Assembly: GCF_003991225.1 (NCBI RefSeq)
Contig: NZ_JTFC01000027.1
Location: 1-53,516 of the forward strand
DNA: 53,516 nucleotides
Origin: Candidatus Kurthia intestinigallinarum
Lineage (GTDB): Bacteria; Bacillota; Bacilli; Bacillales_A; Planococcaceae
Direction of reading: 5' to 3'
Shown here: positions 11,636 to 33,595 of the stretch, piece by piece
How the letters are laid out: every line of letters starts with the position of its first letter
How positions within the stretch are numbered: position 1 is the first letter of the stretch
The notes under the pieces: generated by a model
The model's database searches: none
Told to the model about the DNA's origin: nothing
The model's input: the letters and a program-made list of their open reading frames with translations, nothing else
Translations under genes and position numbers: made by a program

Positions 11636-12442
11636 TTACTTAAAATTCGGTTTTCGTTTCTCTAATACGGCTTGTACACCTTCTTTATAATCTGCAAGCT
11701 CCGTCACAATGCCCATCTGTGATGAAATATAATCAAGAGACGAGCGCAGTGACATCGTTTGTGATTGGTACACAGCACGTTTTACCATACGCACGACCTC
11801 TGCTGGGCTGTTCGCGATTTTTTCTGCATAGCTTTGCGTAAAGGACGTAAGCTCATCCTCAGGCACCACATATGTGACAAGCCCCATTTCCTTCGCCTCT
11901 GTTGTATCAAGTACACGCGCCGTCCATAGCATATCAAGCGCCTTATCCACACCGACAATACGCGGTAGGAAATACGCGCCACCATCACCCGGTACGATGC
12001 CGACTTTAATATAGCTCTCTGAGAACTTTGCTGTATCTGCCGCAATTCGAATATCGCACATAAGCGCCATATCAAGCCCTGCTCCCATCGCATAGCCATG
12101 CATCTGCGCGATGACTGGCTTATCAATTTCTTCTAATAGAAGTGGAATGCGCTGGATACGCTTCCAAAGTGAGTTTTTACGTGCAAGCGCTGTCGATGAG
12201 ATGTCCTCACTACTTTCAAAGAAGCCCTTGCCAGCTGTCATCGCTTTAATGTCGCCGCCCGCACAAAACGCTTTGCCGTTCCCTTTTAAAATGACCACGC
12301 GAATTTCATCATTATCACGCACCTCTTCTAGCGCCTGAATCCATTTCATAACCATTTCCTCGCTAAATGCATTTAAGCTATCTGGACGATTCAATGTAAT
12401 CGTCGCGATACGATTTTCAATTTCAAATAATAAATCTGCCAT
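11636..12442 (-). CDS. Enoyl-CoA hydratase/isomerase family protein
   Basis: A 268-residue crotonase-fold protein that probably hydrates or isomerises an enoyl-CoA made by the neighbouring dehydrogenases. Signatures are ITLNRPDSLNAFSEEM, the oxyanion-hole segments AFCAGGDIKAM and GYAMGAGLDMALMCDIRIA, and GIVPGDGGAYFLPRIVG. The last resembles PaaG/PaaF-like members that carry DG rather than the usual catalytic Glu at the second position, so the exact reaction is uncertain. It lies 19 bases before the CoA-transferase gene and 11 bases after the short dehydrogenase gene, in one operon. Confidence 0.93.
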   Translation of the reverse strand: MADLLFEIENRIATITLNRPDSLNAFSEEMVMKWIQALEEVRDNDEIRVVILKGNGKAFCAGGDIKAMTAGKGFFESSEDISSTALARKNSLWKRIQRIPLLLEEIDKPVIAQMHGYAMGAGLDMALMCDIRIAADTAKFSESYIKVGIVPGDGGAYFLPRIVGVDKALDMLWTARVLDTTEAKEMGLVTYVVPEDELTSFTQSYAEKIANSPAEVVRMVKRAVYQSQTMSLRSSLDYISSQMGIVTELADYKEGVQAVLEKRKPNFK

Positions 12443-28600: not shown

Positions 28601-28733
28601 AACAGTATTTTTTTCTGACGATAATTTTTTAGATAATATAAACAAGTTATTCATCTTATTCTTTTTAAAACACAGAATTTTCTTTCTTTTTATTATATAA
28701 TAAAATAGTAAAAATTTGAAAAGAGGTATATGG

Positions 28734-29672
28734 ATGAATTTTGCAGATAGAACATGTGATGAAATTAAGAAAAAACAATCGCACGCTGTGATTGGCTTGG
28801 ATCCAGTCATTGAACGGTTACCAGCTTTTATATTAGATGAAGCTGAACAAAATTATGGTAAAAATGATGAAGGTGCAGCCGCAGCATTTATTGCCTTTAA
28901 TCGTTTTATTATCGATACGATTGCACCATACGTGGCGATTGTTAAACCACAGCTTGCTTATTATGAAGTATACGGTGCTGCAGGAATCGATGCATATTGG
29001 CAAACAGTAAATTATGCACAGCAAAAAGGATTAATCGTGATTGCAGATGCAAAGCGAGGCGATATTGATTCTACTGCGAGTGCCTATGCACGTTCGTTTT
29101 TTGGTGATGCTTCAAATGAATGGCAAACGCCTAAAAAAGTCGATTCGTTAACAATTAATCCTTATTTAGGATCAGATAGTTTAGCACCTTTTGTTGAACA
29201 AGCCATCGCAAAACAAACGGGCTTATTTATTTTAGTTAAAACAAGTAACCCATCATCTGGTGATTTACAGGATGTTGTGACAGCAAATGGAACGATTGCA
29301 GAGCAAGTGGCACAACTCGTACATACCTATGCAATGCGTGATATCGGCACAAGTGGCTATTCGTCTATTGGCGCTGTAGTAGGTGCAACATACCCAGAGG
29401 AGCAGCGCCTATTTAGAGAAGCAATGCCGACCTCTTTATTTTTAGTCCCTGGTTACGGAACGCAAGGTGGTACAGGCAAAGATATTACAAACGCCTTTAA
29501 TTCAGATGGCTTGGGAGCATTAATTAGTGCATCTAGAAGTATTATTTTTGCTTACGAAAAAAATAAATTACAAACACGTGAAGAAGTACAATTAGCAATC
29601 AAAAGTGCCGTAAAAGCTATGAATGCAGATATCAACACCGCCTTAAAAGATGTAAATAAATTATACTGGTAA
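28734..29672 (+). CDS. pyrF: Orotidine 5'-phosphate decarboxylase, group 2 type
   Basis: A 312-residue protein of the longer (type 2) PyrF group, which decarboxylates OMP to UMP in the last step of pyrimidine synthesis. Key residues are in GLIVIADAKRGDIDSTASAY (the DxKxxD catalytic motif) with SLTINPYLGSDSLAPF and VPGYGTQGGTGKDI for phosphate binding. The ATG at 28734 has AAGAGG seven bases upstream; the frame upstream lacks a site. It is alone, without other pyr genes, and on the opposite strand to most of its neighbours in the repeat-rich accessory region. That makes horizontal transfer or a second copy worth considering. Confidence 0.93.
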   Translation: MNFADRTCDEIKKKQSHAVIGLDPVIERLPAFILDEAEQNYGKNDEGAAAAFIAFNRFIIDTIAPYVAIVKPQLAYYEVYGAAGIDAYWQTVNYAQQKGLIVIADAKRGDIDSTASAYARSFFGDASNEWQTPKKVDSLTINPYLGSDSLAPFVEQAIAKQTGLFILVKTSNPSSGDLQDVVTANGTIAEQVAQLVHTYAMRDIGTSGYSSIGAVVGATYPEEQRLFREAMPTSLFLVPGYGTQGGTGKDITNAFNSDGLGALISASRSIIFAYEKNKLQTREEVQLAIKSAVKAMNADINTALKDVNKLYW

Positions 29673-29742
29673 TTTAACCATTTTCAATGTCTTCAAAGAG
29701 TTATTCGGCAACGTTTTTTGTATTCAAATGTATAAGCAGAGT

Positions 29743-29771
29743 TTAAATTATCCATTGCAATAGAGTATAAT
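29743..29771 (+). promoter_or_regulatory. Promoter of the tRNA-like RNA
   Basis: A consensus TATAAT (29766-29771) is placed 16 bases before the tRNA-like acceptor strand. The -35 region is weak (TTTAAA-like at about 29742). Strong -10 boxes of this kind are usual for stable RNA genes. Confidence 0.6.
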
Positions 29772-29787
29772 TAAATAATAATACTCC

Positions 29788-29983
29788 GCCTCTGTAGCTC
29801 TAGAAGGGAAGAGCGCCGGAAAACAATTGTAGCACCGGGTCGCAAGGTAACGGTTTCAGAAGCACCGAAAAGCAAAATAGCTGAGGCAGGTGAAATTCCT
29901 AGCCGGTGAAATTCCGTAGGGAAGCGTGTTCCCCGTAGCCTATGCTTACGAAAGGAGTGCGGGTTCGAATCCCGTCAGAGGCT
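29788..29983 (+). ncRNA. tRNA-like RNA with a ~130-nt insertion replacing the anticodon arm
   Basis: The 5' end GCCTCTG (29788-29794) pairs perfectly with CAGAGGC (29976-29982), a 7-bp acceptor stem. Next to it is a D-arm: GCTC (29797) and GAGC (29811) around a loop containing GGG. Before the 3' strand lies a classical T-arm: GCGGG, loop TTCGAAT, CCCGT (29959-29975). Between the D-arm and the T-arm there are about 140 bases instead of about 25-45. They can form several hairpins (for example CGGT/ACCG near 29850-29870 and GGGAA/TTCCC near 29918-29935), and GGTGAAATTCC occurs twice. No normal anticodon arm, no CCA end and no group I intron core was seen. The promoter and terminator suggest a real transcript. 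The function is unknown. Confidence 0.8.
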
Positions 29984-29989
29984 TTGTCT

Positions 29990-30018
29990 AACGTTCCTAA
30001 TGTGTCATTGGGAACGTT
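29990..30018 (+). terminator. Hairpin after the tRNA-like RNA (part of the repeat family)
   Basis: AACGTTCCTAATG and CATTGGGAACGTT form a near-perfect 13-bp stem with a TGT loop, followed by TTATTTAT. It can end the tRNA-like transcript. It also resembles the GGAACGTT palindrome of the neighbouring intergenic repeats, so the terminator may derive from a repeat copy. Confidence 0.7.
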
Positions 30019-30033
30019 TATTTATAGGCAGCT

Positions 30034-30675
30034 TTAATTTGACCCATTATCTCTCACTTGAATTTCCCATTCTTTAAGGGATTCAACGAGTTGTTTATGC
30101 AATTTCACGTCAGTATTCATAATTTCGCAACCTCTATCATCATAAATATGAAAAATGCACTTCGTTCTTACATTTATGAAGAAAACATCAGGTGGATATA
30201 GGCAATCCTTTCTTCTTAACTGAGGTTTCAAAGAGCCAAAATCCTTATGTATTAACGTCTTTAAAAGAGACTCTAGTTTTAGATCTGAAACTTTACATAA
30301 TAATTCCATTTGCTGAACACAAATATCATCTCCATCAAATTGCCAAATAAACTCATGCATACGTAATGAATATTTTTTTTGTTGTATTTTTACATATCGT
30401 TGAAAAAAGTTTGGATATACCGTTTTATTGCTGTCATTTGGATAGGAATTAGCAACAAGGATTACATCATCATCCTTTTTAAACAACAAAGAAAAAACAG
30501 TAGCTACGTGCCTATACACGCTGTAAAATCTTTTCATATTTAGTTTCCCATCATCATTAGTCTGATACATATCCTCACCTAATTCGACGTGAATACCTAA
30601 ATCCAAAGAATGATACAGATCTGGTGTTAATAATAAACCTTTATAATATTCATTCATTAATTTCGTTATTTTCAT
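30034..30675 (-). CDS. DUF3885-type protein
   Basis: A 213-residue soluble protein. The segments FSLLFKKDDDVILVANSYPN and CIFHIYDDRGCEIMNTDVKL resemble the DUF3885 family, found near immunity genes in Bacillales. The fold and function are not established. The ATG at 30675 (MKITKLMNEYYKG) is preferred; a GTG two codons earlier is also open. No partner toxin is visible. Confidence 0.75.
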   Translation of the reverse strand: MKITKLMNEYYKGLLLTPDLYHSLDLGIHVELGEDMYQTNDDGKLNMKRFYSVYRHVATVFSLLFKKDDDVILVANSYPNDSNKTVYPNFFQRYVKIQQKKYSLRMHEFIWQFDGDDICVQQMELLCKVSDLKLESLLKTLIHKDFGSLKPQLRRKDCLYPPDVFFINVRTKCIFHIYDDRGCEIMNTDVKLHKQLVESLKEWEIQVRDNGSN

Positions 30676-30729
30676 ATACACTTTTACCTTTTTGATATTT
30701 TTTATCAGTTTAACTAAACTGCTGAATTA

Positions 30730-33007: not shown

Positions 33008-33595
33008 TTAATAATCCATCATTAATTGATTGGCGAGTGCTGCCATGCCAATCTCTATCATATGCTCGTATGTAATTACGTCGGTTGGGCATTGATAGCC
33101 GTCATTTGTAATATCGACTTGCAGCACGCTTTTGCGTAGCTCATTGCGCTCATGCATCACGCGCTCAATATGATCCGCTCCGTCAAACATCATATATTGA
33201 AGTGGCTCATCAAGTGCAGCTACAAGCGCTTCCTCATCTCCTGCTAGTAATCGTTTAAACGAATCAATGGCATTCGCAAATTCTGATAAGGTTTGAACCT
33301 CATTGCCAAAGGCACGGTCTTTTAATAATTTTACGAGCGCCTGCTCAATAATCGTATCTTTTTCAAGCACGGTATTATCATTTAATAAATCGACATCAAT
33401 GGCCGGCCAATTAATCGGTGCTACTTTTTCCGTGCGCTCAATACTAAAATATTTATTCATTTCATCAATCGCGGCTTGAAAGCATAAATACGCACGACTG
33501 TAGCGATGACGCGCCGCTAAGAGTAATCCGTCCTCAATCAATGCCTCACTATTTTGGCGTAATCCATCTAAAAGTTGCTGTGTCTGTTGTTGCAT
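33008..33595 (-). CDS. AbiV-like / HEPN-type protein
   Basis: A 195-residue helical protein. The segment LIEDGLLLAARHRYSRAYLC followed by FQAAIDEMNKY resembles the AbiV abortive-infection family (HEPN-like helices). This match is to the general pattern only. AbiV proteins are reported to stop phage translation in lactococci. The rest (HIERVMHERNELRKSVLQVD) has an RN-type motif seen in some HEPN ribonucleases, but the fit is loose. GGGGGA lies before the ATG. It could instead be a harmless HEPN-fold housekeeping protein. Confidence 0.5.
   Translation of the reverse strand: MQQQTQQLLDGLRQNSEALIEDGLLLAARHRYSRAYLCFQAAIDEMNKYFSIERTEKVAPINWPAIDVDLLNDNTVLEKDTIIEQALVKLLKDRAFGNEVQTLSEFANAIDSFKRLLAGDEEALVAALDEPLQYMMFDGADHIERVMHERNELRKSVLQVDITNDGYQCPTDVITYEHMIEIGMAALANQLMMDY

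What the first reader, a model, noticed from the sequence alone, without database searches (positions are those of the whole stretch)
29778..30018. tRNA-like RNA gene with a large structured insertion in place of the anticodon arm
The ends form a perfect 7-bp acceptor stem (GCCTCTG with CAGAGGC), and a D-arm and a classical T-arm (GCGGG TTCGAAT CCCGT) are in the right places. Yet about 140 bases lie between D-arm and T-arm instead of the normal 25-45. The insertion has its own hairpins and a repeated GGTGAAATTCC, lacks the conserved group I intron core, and no ordinary anticodon arm is visible. A TATAAT box in front and a hairpin behind suggest expression. It could be an RNA that mimics tRNA to recruit tRNA-handling proteins (as bacterial Y RNAs do), a tRNA with an undescribed intron, or a regulatory RNA attached to the accessory region.
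Basis: partly seen in the sequence, partly recalled or inferred. Interest (0 to 1): 0.75.

Follow-up and report, generated by a model that had tools for sequence, protein, structure and literature searches.

The report
Mobile tRNA-shaped RNA with extra domain
The window holds one copy of an apparently unrecorded family of tRNA-shaped RNAs carried by bacterial plasmids, chromosomes and tRNA-rich phages, built around a strongly conserved extra core whose job is still unknown.

Summary
Window 29788-29983(+) encodes a conserved 196-nt RNA: perfect 7-bp acceptor stem, D-arm, T-arm, with extra RNA between D- and T-arm. It is not a decayed tRNA. The same unit, bounded by its acceptor stem and in unrelated flanks, recurs at 87-100% identity in Bacilli chromosomes and in plasmids of five genera, once in a clostridium, and in diverged, often shorter form in tRNA-rich phages (Streptomyces phages, metagenomic phages up to 424 kb). 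In 28 chosen representatives the acceptor stem pairs at 6-7 of 7 positions with 24 different 5' strands (permuted mean 4.4; 0/20000). Architecture: acceptor, D-arm, an anticodon-arm-like hairpin with an A-rich non-decoding loop, an inserted rod with a conserved core (GCACCGAA ... GTAGGGAAGCG), V-arm, T-arm. Rfam 15 gave no match. No neighbouring gene is conserved in 64 loci; in Streptomyces phages it lies, mostly unannotated, among tRNA genes. Best reading: a trans-acting tRNA mimic of mobile elements, matured like a tRNA, whose rod engages a conserved host component of translation or tRNA handling (counter-defence or translation takeover). The family is shown; maturation is inferred; the target is a guess.

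The parts
29742..29771 (+). sigma-70-type promoter-like pair (TTTAAA, 18 nt, TATAAT); the -10 starts 22 nt before the RNA's first base
   Evidence: a TATAAT-like hexamer (>=5/6) lies in the last 35 nt upstream of 41 of 51 distinct Bacilli-type copies against a shuffled mean of 26 (max 33 in 200), with a cluster at -22
29788..29983 (+). the whole tRNA-like RNA (acceptor to discriminator base)
   Evidence: conserved block with sharp ends; 230 bits to the family model, which was built with this copy among 12
29788..29794 (+). acceptor stem 5' strand GCCTCTG
29797..29814 (+). D-arm
29816..29838 (+). P2 hairpin at the anticodon-arm position, loop begins AAAAC
   Evidence: compensating changes CCGG/CCGG, CCAG/CTGG, CCGA/TCGG, CCGT/ACGG; permutation 9/20000 with 27 members
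29845..29853 (+). P3 5' strand AGGTAACGG, base of the inserted rod
29854..29870 (+). core strand A TTTCAGAAGCACCGAAA
   Evidence: GCACCG in 28 of 28 representatives, but CACCG was the anchor and was part of some search patterns
29871..29882 (+). small apical hairpin Pa
   Evidence: AGC/GCT, GGG/CCC, GGC/GCC by eye
29885..29904 (+). hairpin T1 with T-loop-like loop UGAAAUU
29905..29915 (+). hairpin T2 with the same loop; T1-T2 collapsed to one copy in L031, L048, L055
   Evidence: weakly supported as pairs (83.3% of cells, no change on both sides)
29916..29930 (+). core strand B GTAGGGAAGCGTGTT
   Evidence: AGGGAAGCG in 28 of 28, but that string was the cutting anchor and part of several search patterns
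29933..29941 (+). P3 3' strand CCGTAGCCT
29944..29958 (+). V-arm-like hairpin GCTTACGAAAGGAGT
   Evidence: closing C-G flips to G-C in 5 of 12
29959..29975 (+). T-arm GCGGG TTCGAAT CCCGT
29976..29982 (+). acceptor stem 3' strand CAGAGGC; discriminator T at 29983, no encoded CCA here
29990..30018 (+). terminator-like hairpin (13 pairs)

Best explanation
It is a free-standing tRNA-like RNA of mobile elements. It is transcribed from its own promoter (Bacilli) or together with tRNA genes (phages), cut at its ends by the tRNA maturation enzymes (RNase P, 3'-end processing, CCA addition) and folds with an intact D/T elbow. Its anticodon arm carries an A-rich, non-decoding loop, and a rod inserted between that arm and the V-arm holds the conserved core. 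The tRNA body brings it to a host component that handles tRNAs, and the core binds a conserved host target, so the element keeps control of translation or protects its tRNAs, most likely as decoy or inhibitor of a host tRNA-targeting or translation-shutdown response. Shown: a real conserved RNA family, its secondary structure, its mobile-element and phage tRNA-gene setting. Inferred: processing, CCA addition, trans action. Guessed: the counter-defence role (about 1 in 3).
For: Exact-unit conservation in unrelated flanks; covariation in 22/44 pairs, 0/500 shuffles, and in 40/44 pairs on the 29-member family alignment, 92.6% of cells paired against 67.5% shuffled (that alignment is fitted to the model); permutation tests without alignment. 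No conserved neighbour gene in 64 loci, so it probably acts alone on something the host supplies. Most carrier viral records have tRNAs: 22 of 25 have at least one, 12 of 25 have 29-42 (no background phages were tested). Comrade also has a tmRNA, RNA ligase and polynucleotide kinase within a few kb. CCA is encoded right after the element in 8 of 28 representatives. The array in L170 repeats Lys, Asn, Asp, Glu, Gln and Arg tRNAs; L177 repeats Lys, Asp, Gln and Arg.
Against: No transcript or processing data were found. Single sequences fold no better than shuffles (z -0.92; 0.07, -0.37 and 0.10 for the three pieces). CCA is not encoded in the window copy or in 20 of 28 representatives, and the acceptor sequence drifts, so no aminoacylation identity is fixed. 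Nothing ties it directly to a defence system; no tRNA gene was found by ARAGORN near 31 of 33 first-found loci with a Bacilli-type, clostridial-type or related match (32 of 33 loci had none, L028 three). Three of 25 viral records show no tRNA by Rfam. Some copies are truncated (L033, L069) or altered at the 3' end (L017, L037), so it is dispensable.
Confidence: 0.5

Rival explanations
1. A translation or ribosome effector unrelated to defence: the tRNA body enters a ribosomal tRNA site or binds a translation factor and the rod mimics an rRNA junction, steering the host ribosome toward the phage or regulating translation.
For: Many carriers encode large tRNA sets and L148, L153 and L163 a tmRNA. 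The best-scoring rRNA places for core consensus strings are mostly E. coli 23S near 1157-1198 and 16S near 506-556, each flanking a hairpin in the same order.
Against: Those similarities are not significant against shuffled queries (179 to 834 of 1000 shuffles as good; 35 of 300). No ribosome contact is shown.
Confidence: 0.25
2. A catalytic RNA (new self-cleaving or self-modifying ribozyme) carried on a tRNA scaffold.
For: The core strands are strongly conserved in otherwise diverged members, though partly selected for by the searches.
Against: No cleavage junction pattern; the ends look like tRNA processing sites; no Rfam ribozyme match.
Confidence: 0.08
3. A bacterial Y RNA relative that tethers Ro (Rsr) to RNA decay machinery.
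For: tRNA-like ends plus a second module, as recalled for YrlA.
Against: TROVE domain in 1 of 21 carrier genomes; no Rfam YrlA match above 13.8 bits, cutoff 69.
Confidence: 0.04
4. A real tRNA interrupted by an unknown intron in the variable region.
For: A 5-bp stem with 7-nt loop sits at the anticodon position in L028 and L035, followed by the insertion, then V- and T-arm.
Against: Loop AAACGGA has A, not U, at the second position; loops are about 12-18 nt in Bacilli; part of the 'intron' (the core) is the best conserved stretch; several carriers already have many ordinary tRNAs. Whether one isotype is missing in a whole phage was not tested.
Confidence: 0.06
5. A tRNA-like attachment site or transposable cassette kept for integration rather than for an RNA function.
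For: Patchy distribution; Listeria copies L017/L037 and L018 diverge in the last acceptor bases; tyrosine recombinases near L020 and L032.
Against: An attachment site does not explain a conserved internal core, covariation, or copies among phage tRNA genes; no integrase is conserved beside it.
Confidence: 0.07

Closest known systems
T4 RNA C and RNA D (species 1 and 2 stable RNAs)
   Same: Small stable RNAs of unknown function at the end of a phage tRNA cluster; RNA C ends in a T-arm. PMC9697503 (passages read) calls them late RNAs of yet unknown functions, validated by Northern blot.
   Different: None of seven core or loop strings searched is present; the family model finds only the T-arm in RNA C (11.3 bits).
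Bacterial Y RNAs (YrlA, RF02553)
   Same: A tRNA-like end joined to a second module (recalled).
   Different: No Ro protein in 20 of 21 carrier genomes, no Rfam match at cutoff.
tmRNA (RF00023, RF04321)
   Same: tRNA-like ends with the anticodon region replaced or extended; some carriers also have a true tmRNA.
   Different: Only sub-threshold hits around the T-arm (9.4-13 bits, cutoff 47); keeps a canonical D-arm.
GOLLD and ROOL RNAs
   Same: Large structured RNAs of phages, often near tRNA islands, function unknown (PMC12286853, passages read).
   Different: Much longer in the case of GOLLD; no Rfam match here.
Class II tRNAs (tRNA-Leu type)
   Same: Acceptor, D-, V- and T-arm; the next-best hits of the family model in the class search are tRNA-Leu(caa).
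   Different: About 80-165 extra nt, no decoding anticodon, no ARAGORN or Rfam tRNA call on the copies.

Membership tests
transfer RNA | 7-bp acceptor stem, D-arm, T-arm with TTCRANT-type loop | tested here: met
transfer RNA | anticodon arm with 7-nt loop and U33 | tested here: not met
   A-rich P2 loop, AAACGGA in 13 of 28 representatives, about 12-18 nt in Bacilli; one of 28 (L198) had no P2 anchor
transfer RNA | recognised by ARAGORN or Rfam RF00005 | tested here: not met
   no call overlaps a copy
transfer RNA | aminoacylated | not testable with these tools
   needs RNA chemistry
group I intron in a tRNA | Rfam group I core | tested here: not met
   no Rfam match
bacterial Y RNA | Rfam YrlA model | tested here: not met
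   13.8 bits against cutoff 69 in L052; not listed
bacterial Y RNA | Ro/TROVE protein in the genome | tested here: not met
   1 of 21 carrier genomes
tmRNA | Rfam tmRNA model over the whole length, tag reading frame | tested here: not met
   only T-arm-region hits below cutoff; no tmRNA called by ARAGORN on a copy
T4 RNA C / RNA D | shared core or family-model match | tested here: not met
   very distant kinship cannot be excluded
GOLLD / ROOL | Rfam model match | tested here: not met

The most novel reading that the evidence does not exclude
A new class of RNA effector: phages and plasmids of at least Bacillota and Actinomycetota carry a tRNA-shaped RNA with a shared ~40-nt core that acts without a partner protein of its own on a conserved part of the host's translation or tRNA-surveillance machinery to defeat tRNA-based defence. 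T4's unexplained tRNA-cluster RNAs may be a parallel solution.
Probability: 0.3. Interest if true: 0.95.

Novelty: categorically new. Interest (0 to 1): 0.85.

Why it matters
It adds an RNA family that our Rfam 15 searches do not recognise, shared by phages of distant hosts and by plasmids. In the phage records examined, tRNA annotation mostly leaves it as a gap between genes. Its core hardly changes while its stems drift with compensation, so the target should be conserved across hosts. It makes an old question testable: why phages keep stable, tRNA-like, non-decoding RNAs among their tRNA genes.

Tried and rejected
Decayed tRNA with random insertion: rejected by conservation and covariation.

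Known Rfam family: none at gathering score for the window and 18 phage loci, none above cutoff in permissive local scans.

rRNA mimicry: looked striking by eye, failed shuffled controls. In one search one of six comparisons (L052 with 23S) exceeded all 300 shuffles and another (L052 with 16S) all but 7; the other four had 22 to 155 of 300 as good. The broader test gave no support.

Conserved neighbour gene: none in 64 loci, phage loci L147 and later not included. The largest ORF cluster (21 loci) is the antisense reading of the RNA itself; the next (8 loci) is an ABC-transporter ATPase at scattered distances; further ones are common families or synteny of close relatives.

Ro protein partner: 1 of 21. 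Membership of T4 RNA C/D: not supported.

Weak model hits in class and phylum searches (319 of 398 and 298 of 398 genomes at E <= 0.1): only 10 and 4 genomes score like members (85 bits or more; the rest 35 or less). Of 17 such weak loci opened, 16 hold ordinary tRNAs or tRNA pairs; L084 holds no ARAGORN gene and was not resolved. One search repeated the same 261 genomes.

Rows set aside and biases: 13 of 14 matches are members (G171/L014 is a 32-bp match). In one search, four loci (L035, L038, L061, L069) failed automatic trimming; L035 was added by its model coordinates, the others were left out. The 28 representatives were chosen by me for diversity; one search misplaced one anchor (L001) and was redone; L198 has no P2 anchor (n = 27); the core-A anchors of L027 and L028 fall beyond an inserted stretch. 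Most viral members were found with exact core strings, so the fixity of those strings is partly selected. Independent cases: L147-L149, found by core B alone, have core A; L150, found by core A alone, has core B; the second L197 copy, found by the model, has both. In one search the varying pair was misread by the script for L001 and L004 (by eye U with U). Pattern hits in reading frames (L151, L165, L171, L173, L174 and about half) were not counted.

Full report
What is there. Window 29788-29983 (+) reads as a tRNA-like RNA with a perfect 7-bp acceptor stem, D-arm and T-arm, and 144 nt between D- and T-arm. A TATAAT box ends at 29771 and a terminator-like hairpin lies at 29990-30018. ARAGORN and Rfam do not recognise it. 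Alone, the sequence folds no better than shuffles (z -0.92), so the case rests on relatives.

Close relatives. In the window's family 14 of 261 genomes match, 13 of them true copies; in the class 10 of 398, the same ten that the covariance model scores at 85 bits or more; in the phylum sample 4 of 398, all of the window's class. Eighteen plasmid records match, from Listeria (8), Cytobacillus (5), Peribacillus (2), Bacillus (2) and Priestia (1), two of them only in part. A genome-wide scan for one exact motif gave 29 contigs, one from Acetivibrio alkalicellulosi, a clostridium; that is not a census. Identity to the window is 87-100% over the 195-196 nt from acceptor to acceptor for the near-complete copies (L032 is 83% over 166 nt), and the flanks are unrelated between genera. 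A TATAAT-like box lies upstream in 41 of 51 distinct copies, against a shuffled mean of 26.

Structure. On twelve diverse sequences, 44 proposed pairs are formed in 96.4% of cells; 22 pairs have changes on both sides; no shuffle of 500 reached any of the five measures, and sliding the partner by one column halves the pairing. The helices are the acceptor stem, D-arm, a hairpin P2 at the anticodon-arm position, a long-range stem P3 closing the insertion, small apical hairpins, a V-arm-like hairpin and the T-arm. In the Bacilli and clostridial copies two hairpins with loop UGAAANU sit at the tip; three copies (L031, L048, L055) have lost one of them. The second of these hairpins is the weakest helix (83.3% of cells).

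Distant relatives. A locus found by DNA similarity (L028) and two viral contigs (L035, L038) hold the RNA close to tRNA genes, with an encoded CCA and a P2 loop AAACGGA. Short conserved strings then opened a wide phage branch: L147-L150, Streptomyces phages such as Comrade, Gilson, Moab, Kela, JustBecause, GiJojo and Alone3 (23 records, 17, overlapping; neighbourhoods), and metagenomic phages up to 424 kb. Of the 44 loci L161-L204, 24 hold both core strings and the rest look like chance pattern hits; the model, built on Bacilli-type copies, scores 17 places at 39.9-83.4 bits and four more members at 31-33 bits, no higher than ordinary tRNAs, so those four rest on the core strings. In one search, 21 of 23 records have no annotated feature under the match; Moab and LuckySocke have a hypothetical protein there. 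Rfam at gathering score calls tRNAs and tmRNAs in 18 phage loci but not this RNA.

Family-wide tests. In 28 representatives that I picked for diversity, the acceptor stem pairs 7/7 in 24 and 6/7 in 4, with 24 different 5' strands; permuting partners gives a mean of 4.42 and never reaches the observed value (0/20000). P3 (25/20000) and P2 (9/20000, n = 27) are also better with their own partner. On the 29-member alignment fitted to the model, 40 of 44 pairs change on both sides and 92.6% of cells pair, against 67.5% in shuffles and 37-47% when slid. GCACCG and AGGGAAGCG occur in all 28, but these strings were anchors and partly search patterns. Less biased cases: L147-L149 were found by core B alone and have core A; L150 was found by core A alone and has core B; a second copy in L197, found by the model only, has both. 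By inspection the two core strands can stack as a rod: one varying pair is G-C in 20 of 28 and C-G in L035, but A with C in two, C with C in one and U with U in two (by eye for L001 and L004); then come GAAGC opposite GAAGC, CC/GG and a GAA/GUA internal loop. The lowest-energy fold of the L161 insertion contains such a rod, but is no more stable than shuffles. This part is a model, not a result. The discriminator base is A in 22 of 28 and CCA is encoded in 8 of 28.

Setting. No gene is conserved beside the RNA in 64 Bacilli-type and early viral loci. Of 25 viral records chosen by me, 22 have at least one tRNA and 12 have 29-42; many are fragments, and I ran no background set of phages. Comrade has a tmRNA, an RNA ligase and a polynucleotide kinase within a few kb. 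The array in L170 repeats tRNAs for Lys, Asn, Asp, Glu, Gln and Arg, that in L177 for Lys, Asp, Gln and Arg.

Interpretation. The tRNA frame is kept by compensation while its letters drift; the inserted core drifts little. That is what I expect of an RNA matured and recognised as a tRNA by shape and used through its core. As it occurs in phages of distant hosts without a conserved partner gene, its target should be a conserved host component. Phage tRNA arrays are often read as answers to host tRNA cleavage or codon mismatch (recalled), and a tRNA-shaped RNA without an anticodon in such an array suggests a decoy or inhibitor; I put this at about one in three. A ribosome-directed effector is the main rival. 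An intron, a Y RNA, a tmRNA relative or a mere attachment site fit worse.

Prior knowledge. Ten paper searches showed no description among the results listed; several found more papers than were listed. The Listeria plasmid ncRNA study PMC9484302 (abstract, one section and passages read) looked for ncRNAs with Rfam models and lists rli28, RatA, a NiCo and a fluoride riboswitch. Reports on tRNA-rich Streptomyces phages (PMC12509530, passages read; PMC5764925, start of abstract in the listing) count tRNAs and a tmRNA. T4 RNA C and D are the nearest analogues, unknown in function (PMC9697503, passages; PMC12685909, passages); they lack the core. GOLLD and ROOL share the phage tRNA-island setting (PMC12286853, passages). 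The library holds no preprints and few subscription papers, so a description elsewhere is possible.

Noticed in passing
L017 and L037 (Listeria) against L018, end of the element: The copies are about 99% identical up to the last acceptor bases, then the flank switches abruptly, so the first and last acceptor bases no longer pair. This looks like recombination at the 3' end, as integrases do at tRNA genes.
   Followed up: partly
L031, L048, L055: A deletion between the two GGTGAAANTCC repeats leaves one T-loop-like hairpin, which suggests that one of the pair is dispensable or that these copies are decaying.
   Followed up: no
L033:3853-4048, L069, L046:2646-2818: Degenerate or 5'-truncated copies, one of them (L046) about 2 kb from an intact copy.
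   Followed up: no
L197:7551-7790 and L197:2160-2396: One phage carries two diverged members of the family (52.8 and 33.1 bits), both with the core strings.
   Followed up: partly
L028:1788-1883: tRNA-Ile(tat) of 96 nt, unusually long, next to the tRNA-like RNA; a 93-nt tRNA-Ile(tat) lies in L172:3772-3864.
   Followed up: no
L158:1548-1880 (Moab gene 140) and LuckySocke gene 22: Annotated hypothetical proteins overlap the RNA and may be spurious reading frames.
   Followed up: no
core A/B against E. coli 23S ~1157-1198 and 16S ~506-556: Similar letters flank a hairpin in the same order in both rRNAs; not significant against shuffles but perhaps a shared internal-loop motif.
   Followed up: yes
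L035 (record of 13,984 bases): ARAGORN calls a tRNA-Trp at 12252-12328 while the Rfam tRNA search of the same record reports none.
   Followed up: no
window 33008-33595 (-): An AbiV-like HEPN protein (abortive infection family) lies about 3 kb from the RNA.
   Followed up: no
window 28716-29672 (+) and 30034-30681 (-): The RNA sits between an orotidine-phosphate-decarboxylase-family gene and a DUF3885 gene; other copies have other neighbours.
   Followed up: partly
window 29775-29901, Rfam pemK (RF02913), 15.7 bits: Sub-threshold hit that rests mainly on the GGTGAAATTCC string, which the pemK motif also contains.
   Followed up: no
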